Shown in pieces: positions 11,511-26,960 of a stretch of DNA of 27,358 bases. Source of the DNA: Spirogloea muscicola (Eukaryota; Streptophyta; Zygnematophyceae; Spirogloeales; Spirogloeaceae); assembly GCA_009602725.1 (NCBI GenBank), contig WELB01000032.1, positions 792,947-820,304 of the forward strand, written 5' to 3'. The translations under genes were made by a program, and so were the position numbers. The number at the start of each line of letters is the position of its first letter. Positions within the stretch are counted from its first letter, which is position 1. The notes beneath the pieces were generated by a model, which was not told where the DNA came from, did no database searches, and saw only the letters and a list, made by a program, of their open reading frames with translations.

Positions 11511-11745
11511 AAGGAGAAGTGGCGCTCCCAATGGGGGCAAGGGCTGTGAGAAGCCAGCCCGTGAAGAATTGACAAGGTTCGAAGGGGCCAAATTACGGGC
11601 TAAGCAGCATTGGTGAACTCTATGTTTTGACCCGTGGTTACTGACCGGGTCAATCTGCTGTAGGTTATGTAGGTCTTCGGATGTGGCTTGCCTTTGTACT
11701 TGGCCATTAGGCCTTCGTTTGTTTCGAATACACGAATCCGCCCCC
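11511..11745 (-). mobile_element. Hairpin tail (T2 type, -) next to a second 3'-end remnant (+)
   Basis: 11512-11605 matches the T2 tail in reverse orientation: AAGTGGCGCTCCCAATGGG, hairpin core GGGCTGTGAGAAGCCAGCCC (11541-11560), then AATTGACAAGGTTCGAAGG. From about 11620 the + strand reads Y-V-L-T-R-G-Y-stop and continues with a segment that aligns with the UBP intron 1 remnant. The two pieces are separate fragments of opposite orientation. Confidence 0.65.
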
Positions 11746-11857
11746 CCCCAATAGGTGATCTACATCTGTTGATGTACTTGCAACTTTGCTTGGCCACTCA
11801 GCACCTCCTTCACTCAAGGCAGACTCCATTTCTAAAAGTTCCTATTCCTTCAGACCT

Positions 11858-11978
11858 TGTCCATTCTTTTGGGCTGGCCTCTCCCAGCCACCAGTTAATC
11901 TGGCCGCGCTTGATTTAAGAAATCAAGCGCGGCCAGATTAACTGGTGGCTGGGAGAGGCCAGCCCAAAAGAATGGACA
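11858..11978. repeat. Perfect 59-bp inverted repeat with a 3-nt loop
   Basis: Left arm 11858-11916, loop AAG 11917-11919, right arm 11920-11978; every base pairs. Each arm holds a complete T4-type retroelement tail, with its own internal hairpin GGGCTGGCCTCTCCCAGCC followed by CACCAGTTAATCTGG and CCGCGCTTGATTT. It is thus two tails joined tail to tail. Confidence 0.95.
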
Positions 11979-12450
11979 CTGGGTACTGAGCTTCCCTCTG
12001 GATCGTCTCTGTGTCTGCAGTGTTTTGTAGTGTAGTCCTTTTTCCGGCTCCTCTTTCTTTGGCTTTGGACATTGTCCATTCTTTTTTGGGCTGGCTTTGC
12101 CAGCCCCTCTTTTCTATGGGCGCGCACTCTTCTTTGGCTTTGGACATTGTCCATTCTTTTTTGGGCTGGCTTTGCCAGCCCCTCTTCTCTATGGGCGCGC
12201 ACTTCTTTCTTTGGGCTGGCCTCTCCCAGCCCTCCCCCGTTCTGCCATAGCCTCTTCAGGCCCCGCAGTCGCTGCTTAGCTCGTAGTTTGGCGCCTTCGA
12301 ACCTTGTCAATTCTTTTCGGGCTGGCTTCTCACAGCCCTTGCCCCCCTTGGGAGAGCCACTTCTTCTCACAGCCCTTGCCCCCATTGGGAGAGCCACTTC
12401 TTCTCTCCCAGCCACCAGTTAATCTGGCCGCGCTTGCTTTATTTCTTAGA
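11979..12450 (+). mobile_element. Array of truncated retroelement 3' tails (T1, T1, T4/T2, T2, T4)
   Basis: Starts at GGGTACTGAGCTTCC, which elsewhere follows the retroelement stop. A T1 3' UTR comes next (GTAGTGTAGTCC, TGGACATTGTCCA palindrome, hairpin GGGCTGGCTTTGCCAGCCC at 12088-12106, end CTATGGGCGCGCACT). A second T1 tail repeats 75 bases later (hairpin 12163-12181). A third hairpin at 12213 leads into T2 sequence (CGTTCTGCCATAGCCTC, GCCTTCGAACCTTGTCAAT, hairpin near 12320). A 37-bp segment of the T2 end is duplicated (12329-12365 and 12366-12402) and then joins a T4 end (CACCAGTTAATCTGG). Confidence 0.75.
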
Positions 12451-12840
12451 ACAAGAAAGGGCTCGCCCATTGAGGATAGAAAATGGAAAATTAGCCCAAA
12501 AAGAAGGAACAAAGTACGAGAAGGGGGCCAGGGGAAGCGCTAAGAAAAACAAGCACAACAAGAAACAAAGCACTTCCTTACATTTCTTACATCCCGGCGC
12601 ACCACCATTTCGGCCTGGCCTCGCTGCCTTGTCCTAATTTACCCATCAATCATGACCAGCAGCAGCCGCCCGCCCCTGAGCTTCGCTTTGTGTAACCCCA
12701 TCCTCCTGCACTAGCTTTTGCCTGAACAAACTTATTGGCTTGCTTTGGCCCTCCTTATCCCTGGGCTGGCCAATCACAGCCATCGCCCCAACTGGAAAGA
12801 GCCCTCTCTCTCCAGGAAGAGCAGAGCGAGCAGCCTGGCT
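12451..12840. mobile_element. More tail fragments: T1b reverse, then a further tail forward
   Basis: 12455-12590 resembles T1b in reverse: GGGCTCGCCCATTGAGGAT, then ACGAGAAGGGGGCCAGGGG and AACAAGCACAACAAG, all repeated at 25890-26010 and 23100-23190; the hairpin core is damaged here. About 12705-12830 has GCACTAGCTTTTGCCTGAAC (reverse of 18570-18590) and a hairpin GGGCTGGCCAATCACAGCC from 12773. No host gene is seen in 12590-12700. Confidence 0.55.
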
Positions 12841-12849
12841 TCAGTGTCG

Positions 12850-13135
12850 TCGGGTCGCTTTCTCCGCCGTCCACACGCGAGCAGGCCGTGCTATGGCCGC
12901 CGCCTCTTGGGTCTCGGCGGAGTGCCTCATTCCCTGCAGCGAGCTACTCAGACCTGATGTTGCTCACTCGTGGGTACTGAGCTTCCCTCTTCATCGTCTC
13001 TGTGTTCTGCAGTGTTTGAAGTATAGTCCTTTTTCCGGCTCCTCTTTCTTTGGCTTTGGACACTGTCCATCTTTTTTGGAATGGCTTTGCCAGCCCCTCT
13101 TCTCTATGGGCAAGCACTCCTTCCTTTCTTTTCTT
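12850..13135 (+). pseudogene. Retroelement C-terminal fragment with T1 tail
   Basis: Reads, across frame breaks, as the last part of the element protein (T-R-A-G-R-A-M, then F-P-A-A-S-Y-S-D-L-M-L-L-T-R-G-Y-stop, stop at about 12978-12980), followed by the T1 3' UTR with a mutated hairpin (GGAATGGCTTTGCCAGCCC) and CTCTATGGGCAAGC. Truncated at the 5' end. A short unexplained coding-like bit (G-Q-V-R-D-R-L-P-E-H-I-stop) follows at 13160-13198. Confidence 0.7.
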
Positions 13136-13199
13136 TTTCTCGGCACGCCGTCTTTCGCCGACGGGCAAGTGCGCGACCGGCTGCCGGAGCACATCTAGC

Positions 13200-13652
13200 C
13201 CGGTTTAGGGTTGATGTACACGGGGCTTTCGGCAGCCGCTGGCTGGATCTCATTCAGCGGCTTGCCCGCCAGGCCATTGATCGGCAGCCGGGTCTGCCAG
13301 GGGCGATGCCCGGCTTCAACGCCGCCGGGTCGCTCGCGCAAGTCTTCCGCATGCGCCTGGCCGTATCGATTCAACGCTCCCTTGCCCACGCCGTCCACAC
13401 GCGAGCAGGCCGTGCTATGGCGCAGCCTCTGGGTCTCGGCGGTGTGCCTCTTTCCCTGCAGCAAGCTACTCAGACCTGATGTTGCTCACTCGTGGGTACC
13501 GAGCTTCCCTCTGCATCGTCTATATGTTCTGCAGTGCTTTGTAGTGTAGTCCTTTTTCCGGCTCCTCTTTCTTTGGCTTTGGACATTGTCCATTCTTTTT
13601 TGGGCTGGCTTTGCCAGCCCCTCTTCTCTATGGGCGCGCACTTCTCTCTAGC
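13200..13652 (+). pseudogene. Retroelement C-terminal fragment with T1 tail
   Basis: Begins at V-D-V-H-G-A-F-G-S-R-W-L-D-L and continues through F-N-A-A-G-S-L-A-Q-V-F-R-M-R-L-A-V-S, then H-T-R-A-G-R-A-M, to L-T-R-G-Y. A frameshift precedes the end and the terminal stop has become CGA. The T1 tail follows, with hairpin 13600-13618 and end GGGCGCGCACTTCTCTC. It provides an empty site for two insertions described at 15.6-16.1 kb. Confidence 0.75.
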
Positions 13653-15142
13653 CGGTGGCCCGCCTCCCGGAGCTGCAGGAGATGCACCTGGCGCTTCCTA
13701 TGCTCACCAAATGCATTGTGCAGCATCCCCACTACCTGGCGCGGACGACCCCTCCCTGCCCCGAGGTGCTGGGAGCCTACACCAACTTCAACGCGGGCGT
13801 CATGGAGAGCGTGGCGGCCCTCATCCGTCACCCGGGCTTCCTCGACTCGCCCGCTACGGCGCACCAGGCCACTCTGCCCCCGGGCCATGGCGGCCTCGGC
13901 TGCCGCTCGCTCACTCGCATCTGTAGGCCAGCGTTCCTTGGCAATTGGGCTCAGGGCGCCACGTCGGTGGCACAGCGCTTTCTCCATAATGGGCGGCCCG
14001 CGCTGCAGCAGGCTGTGGCGGAGGTGGCGACCGGCTCGTTGCCTTCTCAGGTGGCACTCCGCTCAGCTCAAGACGAGTTACTTGCGGAGCACCCTGCCCT
14101 CGCAGAGAGCGTGGTCCCGTTTGCCCACCTTGCCCACTCCACCGACTCGCAAGTGCAGGCGCAGTACAGGGTGCAGTCGACAAGGCGTCCTTCACGGCCA
14201 CGCTGCAGCTCCTTCCTCCCACAGACGTGCGAGGCCATGCACGGCTGCTGTCGGCCGCCTCCCCTGGCGCGGCAGCCTGGCTCTGCGCGCTCCCTCTGTA
14301 CGACGCCCTCAGGATGCCAGATGAACTCTTCTGTACGGCAATCAATCGCCTGTTGGGTCTCCCCCCGTCCTGTCTGCTTGGCGTGCTGCAGTGTGAGTGG
14401 GGGGAGCGGTTGACGGACCCGGCGGAGCTGGCGGCGCATATCCTCCGCTGCGCGACTGGAGGCGAACATACAGCTGCTCACGACCTCCTCCGAGATGCAA
14501 TGTTCGGCATCTTCCAGGAGGCCGGATACACGGTGGCAATGGAGAATACGTTGGTCATGCCCATTCTCCAGAGGGCCGACGGACTCCACACGCGCCGCGT
14601 CGACCTGGTGGCGTCCACGCCGGGCGGCGGCGCGCTGATGTGGTCACCACTGATGTGGTCGACCGCTCCGACCCGGGGCCCTCTGCCTCGCGGGCTGGCC
14701 ACGCTGCGGCGAAGGCCGCTCGCAGCAAGGCGGCCAAACACGCCGACCACCCGGCTGCAGATAAGTTCGTACCCCTGGCCGTGGAACGTGCAACGCCGCT
14801 GGCTCGTGGGCTCAGGTATATCGTATGCGATTGTCCGACTCCCTTCAGCGGTCCAAGGCCCACGCCTTGCATCTGCTTGCTGGCCGTGCTCTCGCTGCGG
14901 CCTCCGGCTTTCGTCAGGGGGATAGTTTTCCGGCAGCTAGTCTGTCGGATCTGAGGCTCCTCACTCGTACCTACTGAGTGGTCCATCCTCCCCCGTTCTG
15001 ACATAGCATCTTCAGGCCCCTTCGTAGCTGCTTAGCGCGTTTTAGGCCCCTCCATTGTTTGGCCCCTTTCGAACCTTTGTCAATTCTTTCGGGCTGGCTT
15101 TTTACAGCCCTTGCCCCCATTGGGAGTGCCACTTCTCGAGTG
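13653..15142 (+). pseudogene. Longest retroelement copy: end of reverse transcriptase, Cys/His cluster, endonuclease-like domain, T2 tail
   Basis: Three consecutive frames are needed, so it is dead. Frame 1 (to about 14170) has the region after the reverse transcriptase core, with L-P-P-G-H-G-G-L-G-C-R-S-L, typical of LINE proteins. Frame 2 (about 14200-14640) has Q-C-E-W-G...H-I-L-R-C, then H-D-L-L-R-D and R-R-V-D-L-V-A. Frame 3 (about 14630-14790) has the Lys-rich K-A-A-K-H-A-D-H-P block. This resembles the Cys/His knuckle plus PD-(D/E)xK endonuclease of R2-like non-LTR elements (inference). After an internal deletion (the I-D-V-H-G-A-F-G part is missing), 14798-14977 reads to S-L-S-D-L-R-L-L-T-R-T-Y-stop. 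The T2 3' UTR (CATCTTCAGGCCCC, TTTCGAACCTTTGTCAATTC, hairpin 15091-15110) follows. The polymerase active-site part is absent. Confidence 0.8.
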
Positions 15143-15311
15143 CTCGAGTTTACGGGATGCGCCTTGCAATATCTTTGCAGCGGTCCTCCTTGAGACGCTC
15201 CAGCAGAAGGGTGACGGCCTCCACGCCAGACGAGTCGACCTACTGGCCACCCTACTGGCCGGTGGACCGCGCCTAATCTCGGATGTGGTGACCGTGCCCA
15301 TCAGGAAGAAA

Positions 15312-15481
15312 GCTCTCCCAATTGAAGAATCGGCTCTCCCCAAGGAAGAAAAAACTCAGCAAATACGCGGATCACCCGGTTGGTGATGAATTCGCGGCTC
15401 TCCCAATTGAAGAATCGGCTCTCCCCAAGGAAGAAAATACTCAGCAAATACGCGGATCACCCGGTTGGTGATGAATTCGCG
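15312..15481. repeat. 85-bp tandem duplication inside the composite copy
   Basis: Units 15312-15396 and 15397-15481, one mismatch seen (AAAAAACT versus AAAATACT). Each unit ends in the element's own sequence (A-D-H-P-V-G-D-E-F-A), so the duplication arose within the element. The unit also holds two CGGCTCTCCC/GCTCTCCCAATTG motifs that look like T2 tail ends (GGCTCTCCCAATGGG). Confidence 0.9.
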
Positions 15482-15576
15482 GCTCTGGCAATCGATGTCC
15501 ACGGAGCTTTCGGCGTCCGCTGGCTGGATCTCCTCCAGCGGCTTGCCCGTCAGGCCATTGACCGGCGGCCGGGTCT

Positions 15577-15750
15577 GCCAGGGAGAAAAGCGCGCCCATA
15601 GAAAAGAGGGGCTGGCCAAGCCAGCCCAAAAAAGAATGGACAATGTCCAAAGCCAAAGCAAGAGGAGCCGGAGCAAGGACTACACTACAACATACTGCAG
15701 AACACAGAAACGATGCAGAGGAAAGCTCAGTACCCACGAGTGAGCCAGGG
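15577..15750 (-). mobile_element. 160-bp T1 tail inserted antisense, with 7-bp target-site duplication
   Basis: Insert 15584-15743 is flanked by GCCAGGG at 15577-15583 and 15744-15750. The uninterrupted site is seen at 13297-13304 and, on -, near 16690. The insert is the T1 tail in reverse, from its 3' end (CGCGCCCATAG) through the hairpin (15609-15627) to a 5' truncation inside the L-T-R-G-Y-stop codons. Confidence 0.85.
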
Positions 15751-15759
15751 GCTGCCCGG

Positions 15760-16135
15760 CTTCAACAAGAAAGAAGTGCGCGCCCATAGAGAAGAGGGGC
15801 TGGCAAAGCCAGCCCAAAAAAGAATGGACAATGTCCAAAGCCAAAGAAAGAAGAAGTGGCTCTCCCAATGGGGGCAAGGGCTGTGAGAAGCCAGCCCGAA
15901 AAGAATTGACAAGGTTCGAAGGGGCCAGACTACGAGCTAAGCAGCGACTGCGGGGCCTGAAGAGGCTATGGCAGAACGGGGGAGGATGGACCACTTAGTA
16001 GTTACGAGAGGAGCCGGAAGAAGGACTACACTACAAAACACTGCAGAACACAGAGACGATGCAGAGGGAAGCTCAGTACCCACGAGTGAGCAACATCAGG
16101 TCTGAGTAGCTCGCTGCAGGGAAAGAGGCTTTAAC
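15760..16135 (-). mobile_element. 362-bp T1 tail inserted antisense, itself carrying a nested T2 tail
   Basis: Insert 15767-16128 lies between CTTCAAC (15760-15766) and CTTTAAC (16129-16135), a 7-bp duplication with one change. The uninterrupted site is CTTCAAC at 13314-13320. The T1 part (hairpin 15797-15815) is broken at AAAGCCAAAGAAAG by an about 150-bp T2 tail (15850 to about 15997, hairpin 15878-15897), after which T1 resumes with AGGAGCCGG and runs to codons upstream of L-T-R-G-Y. The order of events is readable: host copy, then T1, then T2. Confidence 0.8.
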
Positions 16136-16214
16136 GCAGCCGGTTCGCTCGCCCATGTATTCCGTATGCGCCTGGCGGTCTCGAAGGGGCCAAATGAAGG
16201 TATCCCAATATAAG

Positions 16215-16385
16215 GTATCCCACTCTGTCTGCCTCCAAGGCAGGGCATGTGGTGGCCTGTGCCGCCCAGTTGCAAAGTATCGAAGTATGTGGACCACCCG
16301 AAGGAGGACGGGTTTCTCCACCTAGCCATCCCCTTGTCTTTCTTTCTTTTCGGGCTGGCTTCTCACAGCCCTTGCCCCCATTGGG
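16215..16385 (+). pseudogene. Small retroelement fragment and T2 tail
   Basis: 16215-16330 resembles K-A-G-H-V-V-A-C-A-A followed, in another frame, by K-Y-V-D-H-P-K-E-D-G-F-L-H-L-A-I, the block just after the endonuclease-like motif. A T2 tail (hairpin 16352-16371, CCTTGCCCCCATTGGGA) follows at once. Confidence 0.65.
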
Positions 16386-16779
16386 AAAGAAGAAAGGGCT
16401 CCCCCATAGAGAAGAGGGGCTGGCAAAGCCAGCCCAAAAAGAACGGACAATGTCCAAAGCCAACGAAAGAGGTGCCGAAAAACGAAAGGAAAGGAAAAGA
16501 GAGAAGGGCTCGCCCATTGAGGATTGAAAAGAACTACACTACAAAACACGAGACGATGCAGAGGGAAGAGGCAGCAGCCATGGCACGGCCTGCTCGCGTG
16601 TGGACGGTGTAAGCAAGGGAGCGTTGGAACGAGACCGCCAGGCGCATACGGAATACCTGGGCGAGCGAAGCGGCTGCGTTGAAGCCGGGCAGCGCCCCGG
16701 GCAGACCCGGCCGCCGGTCAATGGCCTGACGGGCAAGCCGCTGGAGGAGATCCAGCCAGCACTCAGTAACCCCTACCAA
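16386..16779 (-). pseudogene. Retroelement C-terminal fragment with T1 tail
   Basis: Coding part 16779 to about 16570 on -: W-L-D-L-L-Q-R-L-A-R-Q-A-I-D-R-R, then F-N-A-A-A-S-L-A-Q-V-F-R-M-R-L-A-V-S and H-T-R-A-G-R-A-M. The stop-proximal codons are deleted. The T1 3' UTR holds a foreign segment (about 16470-16530) that includes a T1b end (AAGGGCTCGCCCATTGAGG). Hairpin 16417-16435. The 5' end abuts the stop of the next copy. Confidence 0.7.
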
Positions 16780-17460
16780 GCTGCCTCAGGTCAGAGAGAC
16801 TGGGTTCCTGGAAGCGGGTCCCCTGGCCAGAGCCAGAGGCAGCAGCGAGGGCTCTGCCTGCACGCAGGTGCAGCGCGGTGCAGCGCGCGGGCCATAGACC
16901 TCTGCAGCGAGACGGCCAAGCGCATGCGGTACACCTGCGCTAGCGACCCTGCTGCATGGGAGTCCACCGACCCCCCATGGAAGCGGCGGACAATGGCGTG
17001 GCGTGAGAGCTGGTTGAGGAGCTCGAGCCACCGAGCGCCTAGCGCCCCGTGCGTTCCGATGGCGAGCGGGAAGGAATCGTCTTCCCGCGGGTGATCTGCG
17101 TATTTTAGCTCCCTTGCCCGAGCGGCGCAGGCTACCGCATACCCAGCCTTGGTGGCACACTGGGTTGGGTGTGAGCGGTCGTATGAGGCAGTGGTCACCA
17201 CGTCCAGGAGAAGACGTGGCCCGCCTGCTGGTGGGGTGGCCACAAGGTCGACGCGACGAGCGTGGAGACCATCGGCCCGTTGCTGGAGTGGCATGACGGC
17301 GGAGTTCTCGGCTGCCACCGAGAAGCCAGCCTCCACAAGGATGCCATGCATCGCATCTCGGAGATGGTCGTGGGTCGTTGTCCGCTCTCCACCGTGGAAC
17401 AGCGCAGAACATGAGCGGCCAGCTCCCCAGGCTCGGCCCCTCGCTCGCCACAGCTGCAGC
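16762..17460 (-). pseudogene. Retroelement C-terminal half, frameshifted
   Basis: From about 17455 downwards on -: C-G-E-R-G-A-E-P-G-E-L-A-A-H-V-L-R-C (Cys/His cluster), E-A-G-F-S-V-A-A-E-N, G-L-H-A-R-R-V-D-L-V-A, G-G-P-R-L-L-L-D-V-V-T-T, K-A-G-Y-A-V-A, E-L-K-Y-A-D-H-P-R, H-G-A-L-G-A-R-W-L-E-L, A-A-G-S-L-A-Q-V-Y-R-M-R-L-A-V-S, and in another frame S-L-S-D-L-R-Q-L-G-R-G-Y-stop near 16768. This copy shows the best preserved D...D-V...K-Y pattern of the endonuclease-like domain. Confidence 0.75.
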
Positions 17461-18092
17461 CAGCGGCCGCCGAAAGCTCCGCGGACATCGATTGCTAGAG
17501 CCGCGAATTCATCACCAACCGGGTGATCCGCGTATTTGCGCTCCTTGCCCCGGGCCGCCAGGCCGACCGCGTGCCCAGCAGTCGACGCCGATCTGGTGAG
17601 ATTGGCGGAGTCGACGCAGAATTGTCACAACATCGGCGATGTTGCGGGGACCGCCGGGGGGCAAGATGGCGACCAGGTCGGCGCGATGGATATGGAGCTG
17701 GCCGTCCGCACCCTGCTGGATGGGCAATATTGAGGTATTTTCCACGGCCACCTTGTAGCCTGCCTCCATGAATGCTGCATGCCATCGCGCAGGAGGTCAT
17801 GGGAACCGGTCCTCTGGCCCCCGTGCGCGCAACGTAGCATGTACGCAGCCAGCTCCGCAGGGTCGGCGTGACGGGCACCGCACTCGCACTGAGGGACGCC
17901 CACGAGGCAGCTAGGGAGGAGGCCCAAGAGCCGGTGGACTGCCGTCCGGAAGACCTCATCTGGCATGGTGAGCGCCGCGTATAGTGGGAGCGCCGATGAC
18001 CAAGCCGCCGCCCCAGGGGAGGAGGCTGAGAGGAGCCGGGCGCGCCAGCGGAGGGAGAAGCTCCACCACCTGCTCAATAGCCGCCAAAAGAA
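17461..18092 (-). pseudogene. Retroelement fragment with Cys/His cluster and endonuclease-like block
   Basis: On - from about 18060: R-A-R-L-L-S-A-A-S-P-G-A-A-A-W, P-S-C-L-V-G-V-P-Q-C-E-C-G-A-R-H, A-A-Y-M-L-R-C, S-H-D-L-L-R-D, then in other frames E-A-G-Y-K-V-A-V-E-N-T and H-R-A-D-L-V-A. At about 17500-17460 it runs from A-I-D-V-R-G-A-F-G-G-R-W-L-Q-L directly into the Cys/His cluster of the neighbouring copy, a chimeric junction. Confidence 0.72.
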
Positions 18093-18500
18093 GGTGCCAT
18101 CGACGTCCACTGGGCATTCGGCGCTCGGTGGCTCGAGCTCCTACACCGGCTCTCGCGCAGCGCCGTGTCCCGCCGCTACCACGGGGAGCAGGCTGACTTC
18201 AACGCGGCAGGCTCTCTCGCTCAGGTGTATCGCATGCGCCTGTCAGTCTCGCTGCAGCGGTCAGTGGCATGCGCGTTGCATCTGCGTGCCGGTTGCGCTT
18301 TGGATGCTTCTTGTAGGCATCATTTCGGCGCTTTGGAATTTGTCCAATCTTTTCGGGCTGGCCTCTGCCAGCCCCTCTTCTCTATTGGCGCGGACTTTCT
18401 TTCTTTGGATGCAGCCTCTGGCTCTGGCCAGGGGACCTGCTACCCGGAGACTAGTTTCTCCGACCTGCGGCTGCTCAATAACAAGGGTGCTCTCTTATAG
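18093..18500 (+). pseudogene. Retroelement C-terminal fragment carrying a dated insertion
   Basis: Head to head with the previous copy. Reads I-D-V-H-W-A-F-G-A-R-W-L-E-L-L-H-R-L-S-R, F-N-A-A-G-S-L-A-Q-V-Y-R-M-R-L-S-V-S, R-A-G-C-A-L-D-A, then after the insertion T-S-F-S-D-L-R-L-L-N-N-K-G; the usual R-G-Y-stop is altered here. Its closest relative is the copy at 23.3-23.9 kb. Confidence 0.75.
18298..18412 (+). mobile_element. 95-bp hairpin tail insertion with 10-bp target-site duplication
   Basis: CTTTGGATGC occurs at 18298-18307 and 18403-18412. Between them, 18308-18402 is a minimal tail: TTTGTCCAATCTTTTC, hairpin GGGCTGGCCTCTGCCAGCCCC (18355-18375), TCTATTGGCGCGGACTTTCTTT. The related copy on - at about 23475 has CTTTGGCTGC once and no insert, which gives an empty site. 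Confidence 0.9.
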
Positions 18501-19090
18501 TAGGGGCTGGGAAAGAGAGAAGGCGCGCGCGGTGCGCATGAAATGGGGACCAATTCAAGCCAATACATTGTTCAGGCAGAAGCTAGTGCAGGATACACAA
18601 GGCTATATGAAACGGAGCCCTATGCTAAGGTGCCCAAGGTAACAGGGTGACAATAGTACCCAAGGTTGAGCACATGCAAACCCGACAAGCAGAAGAAGAA
18701 GTGGCTCTCGCAATGGGAAAGGCTGGGAAAGGCCAGCCCGTAAAGAATAGACAACGTTCAAAGAGCCGGAAGCTCCCTAAAACCACACAGCTTAATAGGG
18801 ATCATTGAGTGCCAAGTAGCCACTTGAGTCGCTGTGTGCTTTAGCGCTTTTTTGGCCCCTTCGAGCTTTGTTCACTCTCTTTCTGGGCTGGCCACTTACA
18901 GCCATCGCCCTCTCCTAGAAGAGTCTTTTCTTATATCCGAAGGGGCCTGAAAGTGTAGAAACTACTGAGGGTGCCTGCTCAGTAATCCTTCGGTCTTTTC
19001 TGGGCTGGCCTTGCACAGCCATCAGAGAGAGAGACGCTTCCAGGAGAGGGCGGTGGCTGGGAGAGGCCAGCCCAGAAAAATGAATGAACA
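18501..19090. mobile_element. Tail fragments between the last coding copy and the RWD gene
   Basis: 18505-18590: the GAGAGAAGGCGCG / GTGCGCATGAAAT / TTCAAGCCAATAC repeat also seen at 7.7 kb. 18700-18770: tail in reverse, hairpin 18721-18739. 18800-18930: T3 tail forward (GCGCTTTTTTGGCCCCTTCG, hairpin 18885-18903, ACAGCCATCGCCCTCTCC). 18990-19090: hairpins near 19002 (forward) and 19054 (reverse). No coding part. Confidence 0.65.
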
Positions 19091-19537
19091 GCCATCGCCC
19101 TAGTCTTTGAGAAACGTTCTACTTAGTCAGCCCCTACCTTCTGTGGAGGAGCACGTTCTTTCCTAGGCAGCAGCCGCAAGTCGAATAGGTCCGCTGTACG
19201 CATAGATGATGATTGGGAGGGCCAAAGCAGGCCAGTACAGCGGTCGTAAGGACGGCGACTCTAGCCGGTGCGTAAGGCCAGCCCAAATCGGACCCGACTG
19301 ACTTCCGTGGCACTGGGTTGGGTTCACCGCAAGGGTTGGAGGTTGTGGCGCCCAACCCCCGGACCCCTGGGACCCCCGCCCCACGCGCCGCATTCCGCGG
19401 CGGCGATTCCGGGGGGCAGCCCGGCACTCGGGCCGCGCCGCCGCCGCCGCCGNCCGCCGGCGTGCCTGCGACGGGCGTCGCGGCGGCGGGGAGGCTGAGG
19501 GGCCTCGCCGCTCGCCCGGGCTGCCGAAAGCAGAGCC
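19091..19537 (+). promoter_or_regulatory. Upstream region of the RWD gene with a CGG/CCG tract and an N
   Basis: Turns GC-rich from about 19330. A CCG tract with an N at 19453 lies about 85 bases before the ATG, as at the DUF604 gene. Probably 5' UTR and promoter. No TATA box or defined element is recognisable. 19196-19225 has a weak match to the 7.7 kb dispersed repeat. Confidence 0.45.
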
Positions 19538-22358
19538 ATGACGGGTGCGTGCCGGATGCCTCGGCGCCGTCGCTGCGCTCCGGGCCTCGCCACCATCGCG
19601 CGCTGCCTCTCAAGGCCGCCGCTCCCGCCGCCGCGAGCGCGCCCGCGTCCGCGCAGACTATGCGGCGGAGCAGGCCATGGAGATTGAGGCGCTGGAGGCG
19701 ATCCTCATGGACGACATGCGAGGTGCGCAACGGGGGCAGGTCCTTGCCCTAGCATTAAGATTCCAGTATGCAAGTCTAGTGATCCGAGTCCAAGACATCA
19801 AGGCACGCTGCCTGCTGGCCCGGCGGCGCCGCTTGGTTGCTGCCCTCCTGCTCGCTTTTTGGCGACTGTGGCGCTCAAGGCGCCAGGCCCGCTTCTGCGG
19901 CGAGCCCGCCGGGCGCCAGAGCTCGATGGCCCGGAGGACGGAGGCTTCGGCGGCGCGGCGGCGCCCAGCTACCAGATCACCGTCTCCCCCAAGGTATGCC
20001 GCACCATAACTTGATGACCCCCCAAGGGGCCTCCGAAAGGGCATGTTCCCAGCCCCCCTTCGCCTTGCAATGCTGTGCTGGTGTGTGGTGCCGCACTGCT
20101 CCAGTCTTCCCAACTCAAAAGGCTTCTCTATCTGAGCTCGGTGCATAATCACAGCTTGGTGGCCGCCGCTGGGTGCGGCGCGCGCTCGAGCGGCGGGGGG
20201 GCGCGTTCGTCTGACGAGGGCGCGCGCCACTGGCACCGCAGGGCGACGATGAGGAGGAGCCCACGGAGCTGCCTGGTGCGTTGCGTCGTCCCAAGCCCAA
20301 ACCCCATCGTCCTCTCTCCTGCCTGTCAAGCCAAGGGGACCCACAGAAAAGGCAGCGGGGCTCTGGCAGCCTCCTCTGTCTCCGGGCAAGCGGATGTTCT
20401 CTAGGCTTGTCGCCGTCAGAGCCTGGGGGGAGGTGTGCCTCCGTGTTCAAGCTGCGAGGCCGAGGCTTTGCAACTGTGGCCCTCCTCCTTGGTCGGATAT
20501 GCCCGAGCTCTCAGCTGCAATGCTGCGCGGCTGCTTGGCTGCCACTTGGTCAGTAGTTGGCGAGAAATTTGTAGGCCACAAGCGCTGCTGAAATAATATG
20601 GCGGCAGTTACCACGCGTTATGCCGCATGCCTTCTTACGGCTGAGCAACGCTGCTGCTGCTCTCTCGCCTCTTACAGTGCGGGTGGCTTTGGTCTTCGCG
20701 CACACGCCACGCTACCCGGACGAGCTCCCGCAGCTCGCCATCCGCAGGTATCCTCAAGTGATAGATGCGAAAACTCTAGCTATTCCCCTGGGATTTGCCG
20801 GTGCCATTTGGTTGCTGTGAGCAGCGTGGCTGTGAGATGGATGGGTAGAAGGATGCATTGGGGCCACTGCGACTGCCATTCCAGAGCTGGAGCACAGAAC
20901 AAGGAGTGCTTGGTCGTGCCCCGTCCCCTGGACAGTCCATATCGGCTGTGGCTTTAAGGATCACAAACTCAGCGGACGGGGTCTTGCATGCCACACAGGA
21001 TGCAGGTGTAAGACTTAGTGCTAGCAGTGGCGCAGGACAGGGAGCACCACCAGTCGACCTCAAAGTAGGACATAGATGGCAGCAAGAGCTCGTTGCTCGC
21101 ACTGCACCTTCAGTATAGCACTTTTGCACCGCATCGCTTACTGGAGGAGGACACACTCCGTGGTGATGCTGCAGCCTGCAGGGCCTCAAGGCGTCGGAAC
21201 TGGACGAGCTGCGTCAGAAGTTGGGAGAGGAGGTGCACAGGAGCGTCGTCTCTCCTCAGCAGCGCATTTGCATACAAAATGTGTGGCAGCATTGATTGAG
21301 TTGAGTGCATTGGTCCACTTCTCCCCCAGGCGGAGCAGAATCTGGGCATGGCGATGATGTACACGCTAGCCACATCGGCCAAGGAGTGGCTGCGGGCTCG
21401 CTTCGGCCAGGAAGAAGCTGAGGAGGATGAAGATGCGGAGGAGGGCGAGAAGGAGGAGGTAAGCAGAAGGCCAGCGTAAGCCGTGAGCAGCCTGTCAGGC
21501 TGCAAGAGCTTTGGCGCTCCGCCTGCAGATGCCGACAGGCTGCTGAAAGGTATCAGTCTGCTGCCTTCTGCTGTTCTGCGCTGCAGGTGATTGAGGCGCA
21601 CGGGTTGCCTGTAACTGTGGAGACGTTCCTCGAGTGGCGGGACCAGTACGAGGGTGAACTGGCGCTGGAGCAGGCCAAGTAAAGCAGCTTGACTTCCAGC
21701 CGGGCAATTTCTTGTGCTTAGTGCTCATTTCAAGAGTCCAGCTGCTGACTGGGCAAGGGAAGTTGAGTGCCTGCACAGGCTGATGTCGGACTCGGCGCTG
21801 GCGGCGCCCAAGGAGCAGAAAATGACGGGGCGGAAGTGGTTTGAGAGCGGCGGCGCATCTCAGGTGCGTGAGCACACCAGCCATGCTGCCTAGCCGCCTG
21901 CGTGTCAGCCTTCAACCTCTGTCCTTGGTAGTATAGGGCGATACATGTTGGGCTGCTCTGTCACAAACCAGTGTCCACAGACCTGAGGCATGCACCTTCT
22001 GTGGAGCCTGGTTGAGCAGAAGGGCCGATTGGGGGTCGTGGAGGGCGAGGATAGCGAGGAAGAAGGCGATGAGGACGTTGACTTTGAGGAGGACTTTGAC
22101 GAGGAAGGTAAGGGTGGACCCAAGATTGTGGTCACTCTCGGGTGTTGGTCCGCCAATGCCGTTCTTGGAGAACAAAAAGCAGTTGGTCATGACAGTGAGT
22201 AGCGAAGTAGTCAAGCACTGCGGCATGCTCAGAGAGGGGGCCTTGACTGCCACCGTGTTCCCTGGCGGCTTGCAGATGGCGACGAAGAAGACATGCTGCA
22301 GCACTTTCTGGCCACAAAGGCTGGCGAGACGCGCAAGGACCAGCAAGATGGCGGCTGA
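19538..22358 (+). CDS. RWDD1: RWD-domain protein, RWDD1/DFRP2 (GIR2) type
   Basis: Small acidic protein; family members bind and stabilise the translation-linked GTPase DRG2 (DFRP2 role) and, in yeast Gir2, Gcn1 (family knowledge). Exons: 19538-19544, 19657-19722, 19920-19993, 20242-20275, 20678-20747, 21175-21232, 21330-21458, 21587-21678, 21779-21863, 22020-22107, 22276-22358. All GT-AG; phases close to 261 aa, near the about 250 aa of plant homologues. The first coding exon is only ATGACGG, and its G joins AC to make M-T-D-Y, the usual family start. RWD domain about 8-115: MEIEALEAILMDD, YQITVSPK, VALVFAHTPRYPDELP, NLGMAMMYTLATSAKEWL. Acidic stretch follows, then FLEWRDQYEGELALEQAK, LTAPK-like ALAAPKEQKMTGRKWFESG, an Asp/Glu tract and DEEDMLQHFLATK at the end. 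High confidence; the tiny first exon is inferred from the family start. Confidence 0.94.
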
Positions 22359-22830
22359 GAGACAGCCCCAAACTGAAGAGACTTCTCTTCGTCTCGCCTG
22401 GCTTTTGCATGGGCCTTCAGTGCCCCATGCGCTAACTGAGTCATTTCCATTGCTGCTGCTCACACAATCCCCCCATACATAGGCAAGACTGCGCAGTCAT
22501 CTGCCGATGCTTGCCAAGGAGATGGTGGTGCTGCTCTGGAAAGGCTGACACTAATTATATTGTTCAGAATGTGGAATGGTGATGCAGCTGACCGTGTGCA
22601 ACATCAACATCAGCAATGCCGGGGGCGGCTTGGATGACTCTCAAGCCTAACTCATGAGAAGCATTAGAAGGTCACTCCGAAGTTGACAGATCGCGCTAGT
22701 CATTATTAAGCACACCATCCGCATGCATGATATTATCATTCAAGAGGGGCCGGAGAGCGAGACAGGAGACACTTTCAGAACACCTGAGCTAGATGAGCAT
22801 CTTTCTTAGAGTGGGCGAGCGCTGCACAGC
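22359..22830. other. 3' flank of the RWD gene, no gene recognised
   Basis: Probably 3' UTR and spacer. No open frame resembles a known protein. No AATAAA or obvious terminator. Confidence 0.5.
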
Positions 22831-23239
22831 ACAAATTGCTCTTCTAAACGGGCGAAGGCTGCAAAGGGCCAGCCCACATAGAGCGAGATGGCAGCAGTGA
22901 GCAGGAGCATCAGTAGTGGCGGGCTTGCCGCGACTGCGTGCAAGGTAGTGATTTGGGGACCAGGAGCGGTGGCTGGCGGCTCGCCAAGAAGAAGAAGAAG
23001 CGGCTCTTGTAAAGAGAGAAAGAAAGACGCTTACAGTAGAGGGCGATGCCTGTGGGAGGCCCTGAAGAAAGTATGGAGAGAGAGTCTCTTCCAGTAGAAG
23101 AAGAAGGCTCGCCCATAGAGGATAGTGGCTGGGAAAAGCCAGCCCAAAATAGGACGAGCATGGGCAAGGGGAAGCACGAAGTAAAACAAGCACAAGGAGA
23201 CACTAAGCAACTACGAAGCACTCAGTAACCCCTGCTAAG
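22831..23239 (-). mobile_element. Retroelement tail fragments, reverse orientation
   Basis: Decayed hairpin at about 22855-22880 (AAGGCTGCAAAGGGCCAGCCC). T1b tail in reverse at 23095-23200: GGCTCGCCCATAGAGGAT, hairpin 23127-23145, then ACGAG...GGGCAAGGGGAAGCACGAAG. Purine-rich stretches (GAAGAAGAAGAAGCGGCTC, near 22986) resemble tail ends. Confidence 0.55.
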
Positions 23240-23920
23240 CCCTGTTCCAGTAGAGGGCTGTGGCTGAGATTGGCCAGCCCAGTGAAAAAAACTAACAAAT
23301 TTCGAAGGGGCCAAAAAAGCGCTAGAGCACACAGTGACTCAAGTGGCCACTGGGTGCTCAACATTATCTCCTGGAAGTGTCCACTTTCAGACTAATATCC
23401 CCTGTTGAGCAGCCGCAGGTCAGAGAAACTAGTCTCCGGGTAGCGGGTCCCTGGCTATAGACAGAGGCTGCAGCCAAAGCGCGACCGGCACGCAGATGCA
23501 ACGCTTGTGCCACTGACAGCTGCAGCGAGACTAACAGGCGCATGCGATACACCTGGGCGAGAGAGCCTGCCGCGGTGAAATTGGCCTGCTCCCCGTGGTG
23601 ACGTCGGGACACAGCGCTGTGCAAGACCTGGTGCAGGAGCTCGAGCCACCGAGCGCCGAACGCCCCGTGGACGTTGATGGCAAGGGGGAAGGACTCGTCC
23701 TCCCTCGGATGGGCAGCATTCTTCGCCTCCTTGCCTTGGGCGGCGCTGGACACCGCATGCCCTGCCTTGGATGCAGAGTGAGTAAGTTTGGCGCAGTCGA
23801 ACACGTCCTTTGTCACCACGTCCGCGGTTAAGGCGCGGTCCACCAGCCAGTGGAGTGGCCAGCAGGTCGACTCGCCGGGCGTGGAGCCGTCGCCTTTCTG
23901 CTAGAGCGGCTGAACCCAAA
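23240..23920 (-). pseudogene. Retroelement C-terminal copy with T3 tail
   Basis: On -: L-H-A-R-R-V-D-L-L-A-T-P-L-A-G-G-P-R-L near 23890, K-A-G-H-A-V-S-S-A-A-Q, A-H-P-R-E-D-E-S-F-P-L-A-I-N-V-H-G-A-F-G, A-A-G-S-L-A-Q-V-Y-R-M-R-L-L-V-S, H-L-R-A-G-R-A-L-A-A-A-S, then a frameshift and S-F-S-D-L-R-L-L-N-R-G-Y-stop near 23396. The T3 3' UTR follows (CACTGTGTGCTCTAGCGC, TTTTTTGGCCCCTTCG, hairpin 23262-23280). One of the least damaged C-termini, and the empty site for the 18.3 kb insertion. Confidence 0.8.
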
Positions 23921-24655
23921 ATACTAAAACAAAAAGGAGTTGTTCTTGTTAAGGGGGCGAGGGCTGCCAACGAAAGTGGAGCGTGTTTTTTAGTGATTGA
24001 GGACCTGAGTGGCCAAGTACAATGGAAGCACATTGACATATGTACATCACCTGCTGCTAAGCTGAACCACTCGGTAATCGCAAGTCAGCATGTAGGCAGT
24101 CGCTAAGCGATGCCCAAACACTGGACATCAATTGAGAAGCCCTTCTGTCATCAGCTAATACTTGACCAGCTATCTTGTGCCAGCATGAGCCAGAGCTCGC
24201 TGTAGACTGGCTGAGACACGACGGAGCAAAACGACATTCATGCTGCCGGCATGTCCATCTCGACTAAAAGCACATCCTCACGTCGTAGACTGACTATGTT
24301 CACAAGTTCGGTGTAAAGCGCGGACTGATGCAGCCAAAAGTGTCGTTGGTCGCCGGTGGGAGGTGCTTGCTGCTGGGGCAGTCAAAGCGCAGCAGCTCTC
24401 TCTTCTTGGCACTTCCCACTGCTTGGCCAGCAACGCGGGTCAAGGCTGTACGGCTCGCTCTCTTCTTGGCACTTCCCACTGCTTGGCCAGCAACGCGGGT
24501 CAAGGCTGTACGGCTCGCTCACAACCACACGACCGAGACATGTGGATCTTCGCCAGTTGTACACCACAGTAATTTGTATGCAACTTTGATGGCATCCCTA
24601 CGCGTCCGTGGTCATGGGCATGATATTGACCATCTCAACAATAGCGCGGTAGCCG
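23921..24655. other. No gene recognised
   Basis: Contains short chance frames only. A 60-bp tandem duplication at 24398-24517 is listed separately. A 'GTTAAGGGGGCGAGGGCTGCC' type tail remnant lies near 23950. Confidence 0.45.
24398..24517. repeat. 60-bp tandem duplication
   Basis: Units 24398-24457 and 24458-24517, identical as far as I can read (CTCTCTTCTTGGCACTTCCC ... GCTGTACGGCTCG). Its 60-base length keeps frame, but no credible protein is coded. Confidence 0.95.
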
Positions 24656-24659
24656 GCGT

Positions 24660-26010
24660 GAAAGAGAGAAGAAGCAGCTCTTTTAAAGGGGGCGAGTGCC
24701 GCGAAGGGCCAAACCACAAAAGAATGTGGGTAAAGGGTCAGAACAGTCGGAAGAGAAGTGCAGAAGAAGGTGCTCGTGTCATCTGTAACGGATGCTTTGT
24801 CACTTGCTAATGATTGACTTCGCCAAGGGGTCCAAAGTAAGTGGCTCTTCCAAAAGGGCCGAGGGCTGTGGAAGTGATTAGCCAGCCCAGGAAAGTGGAC
24901 AAGGTCCAGACAGGCCGCACAAGGAGCTCATAAAATAGGGGCGATGGCTGTGACCTGCCAGCCGAGATGGAGCAGGCAATCTCGAAATCTGGACTGCGCA
25001 AATGTGGCTGCATAGGTTGCACTTTCCGGCCCCTTTGCACCCTGTCCACTTCTTCATGGGCTGGCCTCTCACAGCCATCGCCGTTCTGTGGGAGTACTCT
25101 TTTTCTTTTGGGCTGGCCTCACAACAACAAGAATGCAAGAAACAGCTCTTCCAATGTAAGGCAATGGCTGTGAGGGGCCAGCTCGAAAAGATGCACAAGG
25201 TGTGAAAGTTGTCGAAGCCCCCTGTGGAAGAGCTACTTTTTTCGTTTGTCAGGAGAGCTACTCTTAAGACGTGAGTTCTTCCGAAGGGGGTGGGGGCGGT
25301 GAACGCCAGCCCAGCCAAGAACGGACAAGGTCCACAAGGCGGAATGCGCCAAGACCACACAGCTCTGCAAGAGACTACAGCGAACAGCGAGCTTCTTAAT
25401 CCCGAGTCAGCAGCCGTAAGTGGGAGTAATTTGCAGCTGGAAAAGAGGCACCCCCACGAGAACAAGGAGCAGCAGCCAAAGCGCGGCCTGCCGGAAGTGC
25501 ACTGCGTGTGCCTGGGAACGTTGAAAGCGCGTCCGAACTAAGAGAGGAAGCGCGGCCAAATTGATTGGTGGCTGTGAGGCCAGCCCACAGGAATGGACAA
25601 GGTCTGAAGGAGCCGGATTGCGCAGAAACTAAGAGCAGTGGCTGTAAGAGCAGTGGAAAGAGGTGGACAGCCGCAAACGGAATGCCTGGGCAAGCGGCGG
25701 CTCTTTCTATAACTATTCAGCAGACCAGACAACATTACCACGAAGAAGGGCTCGCCTATTGAGGTTAGGATAAGGGCTGGAAAAAGCCAGCCCAAAAACG
25801 GAAGCCAGCCCACGAACGGACTAAGTACGGACGACAGAGATTCGGAGTAGTTCAGAGTCTCGGTCAGGGTTGAAGGACGAGGAGGAGCAAAGCGAGAGAA
25901 GGGCATGCCCCATTGAGGATAGGGGCTAGAAAAGCCAGCCCAGAAAAGAATGAACAAAGGACGAGAAGGGGCCAGGGGAAGTACGAAGAACAATAAGCAC
26001 TAAAAAGAAA
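24660..26010. mobile_element. Dense run of about ten hairpin tails in both orientations
   Basis: Hairpin cores at about 24863, 24945, 25165, 25291, 25570, 25774 and 25923 (reverse orientation) and 25058 and 25109 (forward); a decayed one near 24690. Typical flanks: AAGTGGCTCTTCCAAAAGG before the hairpin and GGACAAGGTCC after it, in reverse orientation. No retroelement coding sequence is visible, so these are tails alone. The copy at 25774 has the cleanest stem, GGGCTGGAAAAAGCCAGCCC. Confidence 0.7.
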
Positions 26011-26258
26011 CGAAGCTCCCTTGCCCACGCCGTCCCCACGCGAGCAGGCCGTGCTATGGCCGCCGCCTCTGGGTCTCGGCGGAGTGCCTCTTTCCCTGCA
26101 GCGCGCGCTACTCAGACCTGATGTTGCTCACTCGTGGGAGCCACTTCTTCCCTCTGCATCGTTTACATGTTTCGCAGTGTTTTGTGGTGTAGTCCTTTTT
26201 CCGGCTCCTCTTTCTTTGGCTTTAGAAATGCTTTGTCCATACTTTTTAGGGCTGGATT
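26011..26258 (+). pseudogene. Retroelement C-terminal fragment with T1 tail
   Basis: CACGCGAGCAGGCCGTGCT (T-R-A-G-R-A) and, frameshifted, Y-S-D-L-M-L-L-T-R-G, with a change at the last codon. The T1 3' UTR follows (CTGCATCGTTTACATG, GTAGTCCTTTTTCCGG, CTTTGGCTTTAGAAATG) and stops in the hairpin's left arm (AGGGCTGG), where the next copy begins. Confidence 0.65.
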
Positions 26259-26398
26259 TGCGATTGTCCGTCTCCCTTCAGCGGTCCATGGCCCACGCCT
26301 TGCATCTGCGTGCTGGCCGTGCTCTCGCTGCGGCCTTCCGGCTTTCGTCAGGGGGATCGTTTCCCGGCAGCTAGTCTGTCGGCCCGCAAGCCATCGTT
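26259..26398 (+). pseudogene. Retroelement C-terminal fragment
   Basis: In frame, L-S-V-S-L-Q-R-S-M-A-H-A-L-H-L-R-A-G-R-A then, after a shift, F-R-Q-G-D-R-F-P-A-A-S-L-S. Cut off before D-L-R-L-L-T-R-G-Y. Closely related to 14825-14960. Confidence 0.7.
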
Positions 26399-26498
26399 GC
26401 ATGCTATAGAATGGCCCCTGGCCCCTTCTCGTCCTTTGTTCATTCTTTTCTGGGCTGGCTTTTTCCAGCCCCTATCCTCAATGGGCGAGCCCTTCTCT
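26399..26498 (+). mobile_element. T1b hairpin tail
   Basis: CCCCTGGCCCCTTCTCGTCC, TTTGTTCATTCTTTTC, hairpin GGGCTGGCTTTTTCCAGCCCC from 26452, and CTCAATGGGCGAGCCCTTCTCTC. It lies between two coding fragments. GAATG at 26409-26413 and 26500-26504 could be a short target-site duplication, but it is too short to trust. Confidence 0.75.
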
Positions 26499-26651
26499 CG
26501 AATGCGGCTATCATTGAGTCTACAGCGCTCCCAGGCACTCGCGATACACCAGCGTGCTGGTCGTGCATTAGCACAGGCTAATGGCTTCCGTGGTGGTTTG
26601 GCGCCTCAGCTTAGCTTGTCAGATATGCATGTGCTCACTCGGAGATATTAG
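26499..26651 (+). pseudogene. Retroelement C-terminus, divergent subfamily
   Basis: In one open frame: R-M-R-L-S-L-S-L-Q-R-S-Q-A-L-A-I-H-Q-R-A-G-R-A-L, then L-S-L-S-D-M-H-V-L-T-R-R-Y-stop. This is the closest relative of the remnant in UBP intron 1 (V-L-Q-T-R-G-Y). Confidence 0.75.
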
Positions 26652-26689
26652 TGTCCCCCTTAGCCAGCTCATTACCCAGTTAACAGGTC

Positions 26690-26870
26690 ATTTGTAAGGC
26701 TTGAATTGGCCTCCCTTTCAATTTCATGCGCACCGCACGCCTTCTCTCATCTTTCAGGCCCCGCAACCGCTGCTTAGCTCGTACTTTGGCCCCTTCGAAC
26801 CTTGTCAATTCTCTACGGGCTGGCTTCTCACAGCCCCTTGCCCCCATTGGGAGAGCCACTTCTAGCAAGG
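26690..26870 (+). mobile_element. Dispersed repeat joined to a T2 tail
   Basis: 26695-26757 is the 7.7 kb / 18.5 kb repeat in the other orientation (GGCTTGAATTGGCC, TTTCATGCGCACCGC). It runs into T2 sequence (CAGGCCCCGCAACCGCTGC, GGCCCCTTCGAACCTTGTC), hairpin 26817-26836 and CCCCCATTGGGAGAGCCAC. Confidence 0.7.
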
Positions 26871-26894
26871 ACCATGTAGGATAATTATTTGGTA

Positions 26895-26960
26895 ACCTAC
26901 AGTTAGTAGCCGCAAGTCAGCCGCCGGGGAAGCGATTCCCTTGACGAAAGCCAGGGAGGG
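26895..26960 (-). pseudogene. Retroelement C-terminal remnant
   Basis: On - it reads G-F-R-Q-G-N-R-F-P and, after a frame shift, A-D-L-R-L-L-T, the end of the element protein. No tail of the known types follows. Confidence 0.55.

What the first reader, a model, noticed from the sequence alone, without database searches (positions are those of the whole stretch)
11511..26960. About 35 copies of one hairpin-centred sequence, best explained as the 3' tail of a local non-LTR retrotransposon
The motif GGGCTGG(C)...(G)CCAGCCC or its GGGCTGGC...ACAGCC variant occurs about 35 times, on both strands, mostly in isolation. Wherever a retroelement C-terminus is preserved (12.9, 13.5, 15.0, 16.5, 23.4 kb) the hairpin lies downstream of the S-D-L-x-L-L-T-R-G-Y-stop end. 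So the short repeats are 3' tails: either extreme 5' truncations or SINE-like parasites using the same reverse transcriptase. A stem-loop kept across diverged subfamilies suggests the recognition site for the element's reverse transcriptase, as known for stringent-type LINEs.
Basis: partly seen in the sequence, partly recalled or inferred. Interest (0 to 1): 0.75.

Follow-up and report, generated by a model that had tools for sequence, protein, structure and literature searches.

The report
Hairpin 3' tails of algal LINEs
The repeated hairpin is the 3' end of an abundant family of copy-and-paste elements in a green-lineage genome, and many copies are short stumps that look like copying that stopped early; the mechanism is of a known type, but the swarm of stumps and one natural tail swap make it a good test system.

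Summary
A covariance model finds 32 tails in the window at E<0.001, all at 11.5-26.9 kb. Genome-wide an exact hairpin pattern matches 5,041+4,998 times against 2+2 for the reversed pattern.

The hairpin is the 3' tail of single-ORF non-LTR retrotransposons with N-terminal zinc fingers, an R2-like reverse transcriptase and restriction-like-endonuclease (RLE) motifs. It follows the stop codon in 17 of 18 readable A-type flanks and 6 of 7 B-type ones. Sister families Y (0 of 11) and M (0 of 8) end differently. So it marks one clade, not all local LINEs.

Short copies look like 5'-truncated LINE insertions, not SINEs: repeats of at least 8 nt flank 19 of 160 tails (5.1 expected), inserts run 49-239 nt, and no shared non-LINE head was found.

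Recognition by the element's enzyme is inferred. The main stem is invariant, so covariation cannot test it; an outer stem predicted in A and B failed an arm-swap test. Support comes from tail conservation and an A-ORF/B-tail chimera with four distinct 3' flanks.

New member of a known kind.

The parts
11509..11578 (-). tail copy, C type
   Evidence: E=3.4e-14; type
11854..11922 (+). tail copy, E type
   Evidence: E=1.4e-10
11914..11982 (-). tail copy, E type, tail-to-tail with the one before
   Evidence: E=1.4e-09
12069..12138 (+). tail copy, B type
   Evidence: E=2.6e-12
12144..12207 (+). tail copy, B type
   Evidence: E=2.8e-12
12213..12257 (+). partial tail copy
   Evidence: E=0.00017
12301..12370 (+). 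tail copy, C type
   Evidence: E=1.8e-14
12448..12515 (-). tail copy with damaged hairpin
   Evidence: E=1.9e-07
12742..12814 (+). tail copy, D-like
   Evidence: E=6.4e-08
13060..13128 (+). tail copy, B type, after the C-terminus ending at about 12,973
   Evidence: E=1.7e-10
13583..13652 (+). tail copy, B type, after the C-terminus ending at about 13,495
   Evidence: E=9.6e-14
15074..15142 (+). tail copy, C type, after the C-terminus ending at 14,974
   Evidence: E=3e-12
15577..15646 (-). tail copy, B type
   Evidence: E=2.4e-11
15765..15834 (-). tail copy, B type
   Evidence: E=3.9e-14
15846..15915 (-). tail copy, C type
   Evidence: E=2.7e-15
16331..16391 (+). tail copy, C type
   Evidence: E=3e-07
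16385..16453 (-). tail copy, B type
   Evidence: E=5.8e-14
18337..18406 (+). tail copy inside a LINE ORF, 95-nt insert flanked by CTTTGGATGC
   Evidence: E=1.9e-12
18691..18757 (-). tail copy
   Evidence: E=2.2e-11
18865..18936 (+). tail copy, D type
   Evidence: E=5.6e-10
19022..19094 (-). tail copy, D type
   Evidence: E=3.6e-09
22824..22892 (-). tail copy, diverged
   Evidence: E=0.00011
23094..23164 (-). tail copy, A-like, after the C-terminus ending at 23,395
   Evidence: E=1e-11
24831..24905 (-). tail copy, enlarged loop
   Evidence: E=9.4e-09
25039..25110 (+). tail copy, D-like
   Evidence: E=5.9e-10
25132..25201 (-). tail copy, D-like
   Evidence: E=2.6e-08
25262..25331 (-). tail copy, diverged
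   Evidence: E=5.2e-05
25537..25603 (-). tail copy, E type, 82-nt insert flanked by CTCTTAGTT
   Evidence: E=8.4e-10
25737..25810 (-). tail copy, A-like
   Evidence: E=2.7e-05
25890..25960 (-). tail copy, A type
   Evidence: E=2.8e-10
26433..26503 (+). tail copy, A type
   Evidence: E=1.3e-14
26799..26869 (+). tail copy, C type
   Evidence: E=9.5e-12
13652..14631 (+). LINE ORF fragments (RT thumb/linker to RLE region)
   Evidence: tblastn with the A protein, E=1.17e-108
14801..14977 (+). C-type LINE C-terminus and stop
   Evidence: E=7.95e-33 (query partly typed by analogy)
16878..17411 (-). A-type RLE region; source of the genome query
   Evidence: E=6.26e-83
17391..18104 (-). LINE ORF fragment, frameshifted
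   Evidence: E=6.93e-49
23496..23886 (-). A-type C-terminal fragments
   Evidence: E=2.32e-37
26499..26651 (+). M-type LINE C-terminus and stop (family without the hairpin)
   Evidence: E=8.63e-29

Best explanation
The hairpin unit is the 3'-terminal RNA module of one clade (subfamilies A to E) of single-ORF, RLE-type non-LTR retrotransposons. Shown: it ends the 3' UTR after the ORF stop; it is more conserved between subfamilies than the rest of the UTR; dispersed copies have a fixed 3' side and variable 5' limits, with flanking repeats in excess of chance; 98 of 135 sampled tails lack the LINE C-terminal motif; an A-ORF/B-tail chimera sits at four places with distinct 3' flanks. Inferred: the enzyme binds the hairpin, nicks DNA at a pyrimidine-rich site, primes cDNA from the CTTCT end by target-primed reverse transcription, and often stops after some 50-250 nt, leaving tens of thousands of tail-only stumps.
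For: Tail after the stop: 17 of 18 readable A-type flanks, 54-94 nt after the stop (20 chosen by me from the 150 listed; 2 came back all N); 6 of 7 B-type copies and 6 of 6 further A-type copies, one with an altered 3' arm and one displaced by a nested insertion (read by eye). Full-length open frames with a hairpin tail: C20, C135, C63. Flanking repeats of at least 8 nt: 19 of 160 tails against 5.1 in swapped pairs, inserts 49-239 nt; at junctions fixed by alignment to a full-length copy, at least 7 nt in 7 of 15 against 1.3 expected. Truncation: 37 of 135 tails keep the C-terminal motif; exact 30-mers of one A subfamily count 1,058, 673, 75 and 27 from the hairpin to about 3.6 kb upstream; of 100 listed hairpins 46 have the word 93 nt upstream and 5 the one at about 690 nt. 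Chimera: 5 places, 4 distinct 3' flanks. Conservation: tail identity in excess of shuffled exceeds that of the upstream UTR in 14 of 15 subfamily pairs.
Against: No binding or retrotransposition assay. Main stem invariant, so no covariation. The outer stem predicted for A and B failed: matched arms pair no better than swapped ones, -6.56 against -6.54 kcal/mol, z=-0.2. 141 of 160 tails show no qualifying repeat of 8 nt or more; decay is likely but unshown. A first, looser version of the repeat test gave 44 of 160 against about 27 expected; the stricter rules were set after seeing it. The 30-mers also drop out by sequence divergence, so they overstate truncation. In a hairpin-independent scan 50 of 80 scored C-terminal hits had a same-strand tail within 300 nt and 11 an opposite-strand one; that set includes M and Y ends and weak hits up to E=0.5. 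The RLE fold model failed.
Confidence: 0.85

Rival explanations
1. The short copies are a SINE: a separate short RNA with its own promoter and head that borrowed the LINE tail.
For: Short copies outnumber copies with a LINE C-terminus (98 against 37 of 135), and green algae are known to have SINEs sharing LINE tails (PMC3747384, passages).
Against: No shared non-LINE head in 91 testable copies: upstream homology ends at varied points, median 24 nt above the tail; the 10 longest extensions, as I read them, are LINE sequence (in two cases reversed LINE sequence) or neighbouring tails. Insert lengths spread over 49-239 nt.
Confidence: 0.06
2. The hairpin is an inverted-repeat DNA transposon or MITE.
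For: It is palindromic and occurs on both strands.
Against: It sits inside a larger asymmetric unit with unlike ends, follows LINE stop codons, and copies have variable 5' limits.
Confidence: 0.02
3. The tail is conserved as DNA or for RNA stability or 3'-end formation rather than for recognition by the element's own enzyme.
For: Main stem invariant in sequence; no covariation; no binding data.
Against: Conservation is specific to one LINE clade, sister families have other ends, and tail-only copies inserted with flanking repeats suggest that the tail is enough to start an insertion.
Confidence: 0.12
4. Short copies arose from full-length insertions later cut up by nested insertions and deletions.
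For: The window is a nest of LINE fragments.
Against: Short inserts of 49-239 nt are themselves bounded by flanking repeats in excess of chance.
Confidence: 0.1

Closest known systems
R2-type (RLE) non-LTR retrotransposons, e.g. R2 proteins in PDB entries 9nl2, 9nl3 and 9dou
   Same: Single ORF, N-terminal C2H2-like fingers, RT matching R2 (profile E=4.9e-09), RLE-like motifs R-x-x-D-(L/I)-V...D-V-V and K-x2-(K/H)-Y, a C-terminal Cys/His knuckle.
   Different: Dispersed on many contigs rather than at one rDNA site; knuckle spacing CX1CX11-12HX3C (read) against the published CX2-3CX7-8HX4C (PMC5678591, passages); the PDB match covers the RT region only; flanking repeats of about 6-14 nt.
Stringent-type LINEs with a 3' stem-loop (zebrafish ZfL2-1 and ZfL2-2; UnaL2)
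   Same: A conserved stem-loop near the 3' end of the UTR. In ZfL2 it is bound by the protein and swaps between the two LINEs abolish retrotransposition (PMC4176376, passages).
   Different: Those are APE-type L2 LINEs (recalled); here only RVT_1 passed Pfam's cut-off. Here an A-ORF/B-tail chimera did insert. Recognition untested here.
RandI/Dualen LINEs and SINEX families of Chlamydomonas
   Same: Green-lineage LINEs with 3' tails; one SINEX family has a (CTTT)n 3' repeat (PMC3747384, passages).
   Different: RandI has an APE domain besides the RLE (recalled); none passed here; no SINE partner found.
Utopia and NeSL RLE LINEs
   Same: One to three N-terminal zinc fingers, RT, a C-terminal zinc finger and RLE (PMC4640811, passages).
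   Different: Utopia targets U2 snRNA genes; here insertion is dispersed. The clade was not resolved by a tree.

Membership tests
Non-LTR retrotransposon | reverse transcriptase in an ORF | tested here: met
   PF00078 58.8 bits, cut-off 29.6
Non-LTR retrotransposon | fixed 3' side, variable 5' limit, target-site duplications | tested here: met
   19 of 160 against 5.1 expected, inserts 49-239 nt; 7 of 15 with 7 nt or more against 1.3; 141 of 160 and 8 of 15 show none at those cut-offs
RLE-type LINE (R2-like) | RT closest to R2 among solved structures | tested here: met
   three R2 sequences only, E=4.9e-09 to 8.8e-09, cut-off 0.001, profile A2
RLE-type LINE (R2-like) | KX2KY motif, first K catalytic, second less conserved | tested here: met
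   KELKY in A, KEKKY in B; Y has KLRHY, i.e. not the second K; motif from PMC5678591 (passages)
RLE-type LINE (R2-like) | zinc knuckle CX2-3CX7-8HX4C | tested here: not met
   no match in A, B or Y; the alignment reads CX1CX11-12HX3C
RLE-type LINE (R2-like) | restriction-endonuclease-like fold | tested here: inconclusive
   model of a window fragment, mean pLDDT 43.4
R2 proper | insertion at one 28S rDNA site | tested here: not met
   copies on many contigs with unrelated flanks
Stringent-type LINE | conserved stem-loop near the 3' end | tested here: met
Stringent-type LINE | stem-loop required and recognised by the enzyme | not testable with these tools
   covariation uninformative; arm swap of the outer stem negative, z=-0.2
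SINE | common non-LINE 5' head | tested here: not met
   91 of 98 tails without C-terminus tested, none seen
SINE | internal Pol III promoter | not tested
   only an ARAGORN tRNA scan: none in the window, one tRNA gene in the 80-kb sample
MITE | two matching inverted termini | tested here: not met
   internal hairpin, unlike ends, variable 5' limit

The most novel reading that the evidence does not exclude
The hairpin tail is a portable, enzyme-readable tag that has moved between LINE subfamilies, so that a pool of related reverse transcriptases copies any RNA bearing it, while the sister Y and M families run on separate tags in the same nucleus. The genome would then hold at least three parallel tail codes, each with its own swarm of aborted stumps.
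Probability: 0.3. Interest if true: 0.6.

Novelty: new member of a known kind. Interest (0 to 1): 0.42.

Why it matters
It supplies a natural experiment on how RLE-type LINE enzymes choose their RNA: one genome with related full-length elements, sequence-distinct 3' ends (A-E hairpin, Y, M), a natural A-ORF/B-tail chimera found at four places with distinct 3' flanks, and many short insertions that may record where copying stopped. It also warns annotators that a large class of short hairpin repeats here is LINE debris and not a SINE or MITE.

Tried and rejected
SINE head: sought by anchored all-against-all alignment of upstream flanks; none seen. Covariation: RNAalifold on A1 chose another, weak fold (-2.78 kcal/mol, 0 of 6 pairs with two-sided change); counting the drawn stem showed it invariant. 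A second small helix (columns 50-53 with 59-62) had two-sided changes at 3 of 4 pairs, but sliding all partners by one column gave similar counts, so it is not claimed. Outer closing stem: strong in single A and B folds (z=-2.85 and -4.14), absent in the C and E folds, and rejected as a coevolved helix by the arm-swap test. Template jumping as the cause of tandem tails: of 38 neighbouring pairs within 150 nt, 22 are same-strand, 11 tail-to-tail and 5 head-to-head; no clear same-strand excess. Pyrimidine-rich targets: 13 of the 19 repeats start with at least 3 pyrimidines in 4 letters, but the pyrimidine-rich tail end can lengthen such matches by chance, so this stays inferred. RLE structure from window fragments: mean pLDDT 43.4, not used. 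Rfam at gathering thresholds: no match in 11.0-27.4 kb. Organism: no tool names it; a rubisco small-subunit exon matches best chains that I take from recall to be land-plant (120.8 bits) and less well ones that I take to be Chlamydomonas (88.1 bits); a streptophyte-type green alga is inferred. Paper searches listed no description of this family; that is not proof that it is unpublished. No paper was read whole; passages only.

Rows dropped before counts: I used 32 of 40 rows, 27 of 39, 76 of 83 and 37 of 42, leaving out the weakest; that makes 172 tails. 12 of 172 lacked flank for the repeat tests and 25 of 172 were left out of the arm test (147 used). The 37 tails of alignment A1 were chosen by me for diversity. 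Of 16 Y and B copies with a compared full-length relative, 15 entered; L078 was left out because its 5' junction lies outside the fetched stretch.

Full report
Setting. The window is G000:C32:792947-820304 of a 153-Mb, 471-contig genome that is searched with introns in mind. Window genes include a ubiquitin hydrolase and a DUF604/Fringe-like gene. A rubisco small-subunit exon is most like chains that I take from recall to be land-plant rubisco. I infer a streptophyte-type green alga; no tool names it.

Observation. A regex for the hairpin gives 39 rows, or 29 distinct places, and a related pattern 24 matches against 0.09 expected in shuffles. A covariance model built from 37 aligned tails finds 32 tails at E<0.001, all between 11.5 and 26.9 kb. 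The unit is about 65-70 nt: an upstream TTGTYCATTC box, the GGGCTGG...CAGCC hairpin, a TGGGCGAGC-like box and a CTTCT end. Genome-wide the exact hairpin pattern matches 5,041+4,998 times against 2+2 for the reversed pattern. Eight 10-kb stretches hold 27 tails, unevenly, so a figure near 50,000 per genome is only a rough extrapolation.

What carries it. Searching the genome with a C-terminal fragment from the window gave 11,894 candidates, 150 of them scored. Of 20 downstream flanks that I chose from those 150, two came back as N; 17 of the other 18 carry the tail on the same strand, 54-94 nt after the stop. In the exception, L003, the UTR is broken about 40 nt after the stop. The A open frame (1,318 aa read, cut by the end of the fetched stretch) has two C2H2-like fingers by regex (Pfam's zf-C2H2_4 is below its cut-off), a reverse transcriptase (PF00078, 58.8 bits) and RLE-like motifs. 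A profile of A, B and Y matches only R2 retrotransposon proteins in the PDB at E<=0.001, in the RT region. The KX2KY motif named for LINE RLEs in PMC5678591 (passages) is present in A and B; Y has KLRHY; the published zinc-knuckle spacing is not met in any of the three.

Sister families. B (1,406-aa open frame, 71% identical to A in the aligned part) carries the hairpin in 6 of 7 copies; in the seventh, L086, one arm is deleted. Y (1,267 aa, 46% identical to A; 9 of 150 listed hits have an open frame of that length) has a nearly identical, different 3' end in all 11 copies read and no GGGCTGG hairpin in it. M lacks it in 8 of 8 copies (read by eye; these copies were picked for short open frames). 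Tails of other types do lie downstream of some of them as separate insertions. Y and M ends fold into other short hairpins, with modest z-scores (-1.55 and -1.37).

Short copies. I pooled 172 tails: 32 from the window, 27 from the 80-kb sample, 76 from 40 loci on contig 1 and 37 from C-terminal loci. Of 160 with enough flank, 19 have an exact repeat of at least 8 nt that starts within 16 nt after the GAGC box and recurs upstream, against 5.1 in swapped pairs; the inserts are 49-239 nt. A looser first version gave 44 against about 27, and the stricter rules were set after it. An independent test at junctions fixed by alignment to a full-length copy gave repeats of at least 7 nt in 7 of 15 Y and B copies against 1.3 expected, and at least 6 nt in 10 of 15 against 3.5. 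Window 18,337 is a clear case: a 95-nt insert inside a LINE ORF between two copies of CTTTGGATGC. Among the 135 tails outside the C-terminal loci, 37 keep the LINE C-terminal motif and 98 do not; 91 of the 98 were tested for shared upstream sequence, with a median extension of 24 nt and no common non-LINE head. In one A subfamily, exact words count 1,058 at the hairpin, 673 at 93 nt, 75 at about 690 nt and 27 at about 3.6 kb upstream; of 100 listed hairpins 46 have the word at 93 nt and 5 the one at about 690 nt. Sequence divergence adds to that fall, so it is an upper bound on truncation.

Recognition. Over 15 subfamily pairs, tail identity is 66-88% against 37-48% shuffled, and upstream-UTR identity 48-83% against 35-63%; the excess is larger for the tail in 14 of 15 pairs. 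The main stem does not vary, so it offers no covariation. The outer stem seen in A and B folds failed the arm-swap test. The best positive evidence for a functional module is a chimera: an A-type ORF end and UTR start joined to a B-type tail occurs at five places. Two of them share one 3' flank, so they are best read as one insertion later duplicated; the other three have flanks of their own, and two of these are truncated at different points. Whether the A or the B enzyme copied it is unknown.

Mechanism. Most likely: RLE nicking at a pyrimidine-rich site, priming from the CTTCT end of the hairpin tail, and early stopping. The DNA-level signs (fixed 3' side, variable 5' limit, flanking repeats in excess of chance) are shown; hairpin binding, target preference and early stopping are inferred, by analogy with R2 and with stringent-type LINEs whose proteins bind their cognate stem-loop (PMC4176376, passages). 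In those fish LINEs swapped stem-loops abolished retrotransposition, whereas here an A/B chimera did insert; A and B hairpins are, however, nearly the same sequence.

Novelty. The kind is known. The paper searches that I ran listed no description of this family, which does not prove absence; Repbase was not at hand.

Noticed in passing
L071; L073-L082: The Y family looks very young: the 150 listed C-terminal hits are 96-100% identical to the query and 9 have 1,267-aa open frames.
   Followed up: partly
L067:395-449: A tail insert flanked by GATGAGCTG begins with what reads as a reversed piece of a tail, like a 5' inversion (twin priming).
   Followed up: no
window 11854-11982: Two E-type tails meet tail-to-tail as a near-perfect palindrome around GATTTAAGAAATC.
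   Followed up: no
window 2336-2861: A 263-bp unit repeated twice in tandem with 100% matches.
   Followed up: no
window 11611-11750 (+): A Y-like C-terminus (GELYVLTRGY and stop) with a Y-like 3' end lies between tails of C and E type.
   Followed up: no
G000:C20:1130895-1135896 and C338:9408-14409: In both contigs two LINE C-termini point away from each other 4,597 bases apart, with the long open frame on opposite sides; they look like copies of one segment in opposite orientation.
   Followed up: no
window 1399-equivalent tail at 25890-25960(-) and L041:371-433: Two A-type tails have reversed LINE C-terminal sequence directly upstream, with different junctions.
   Followed up: no
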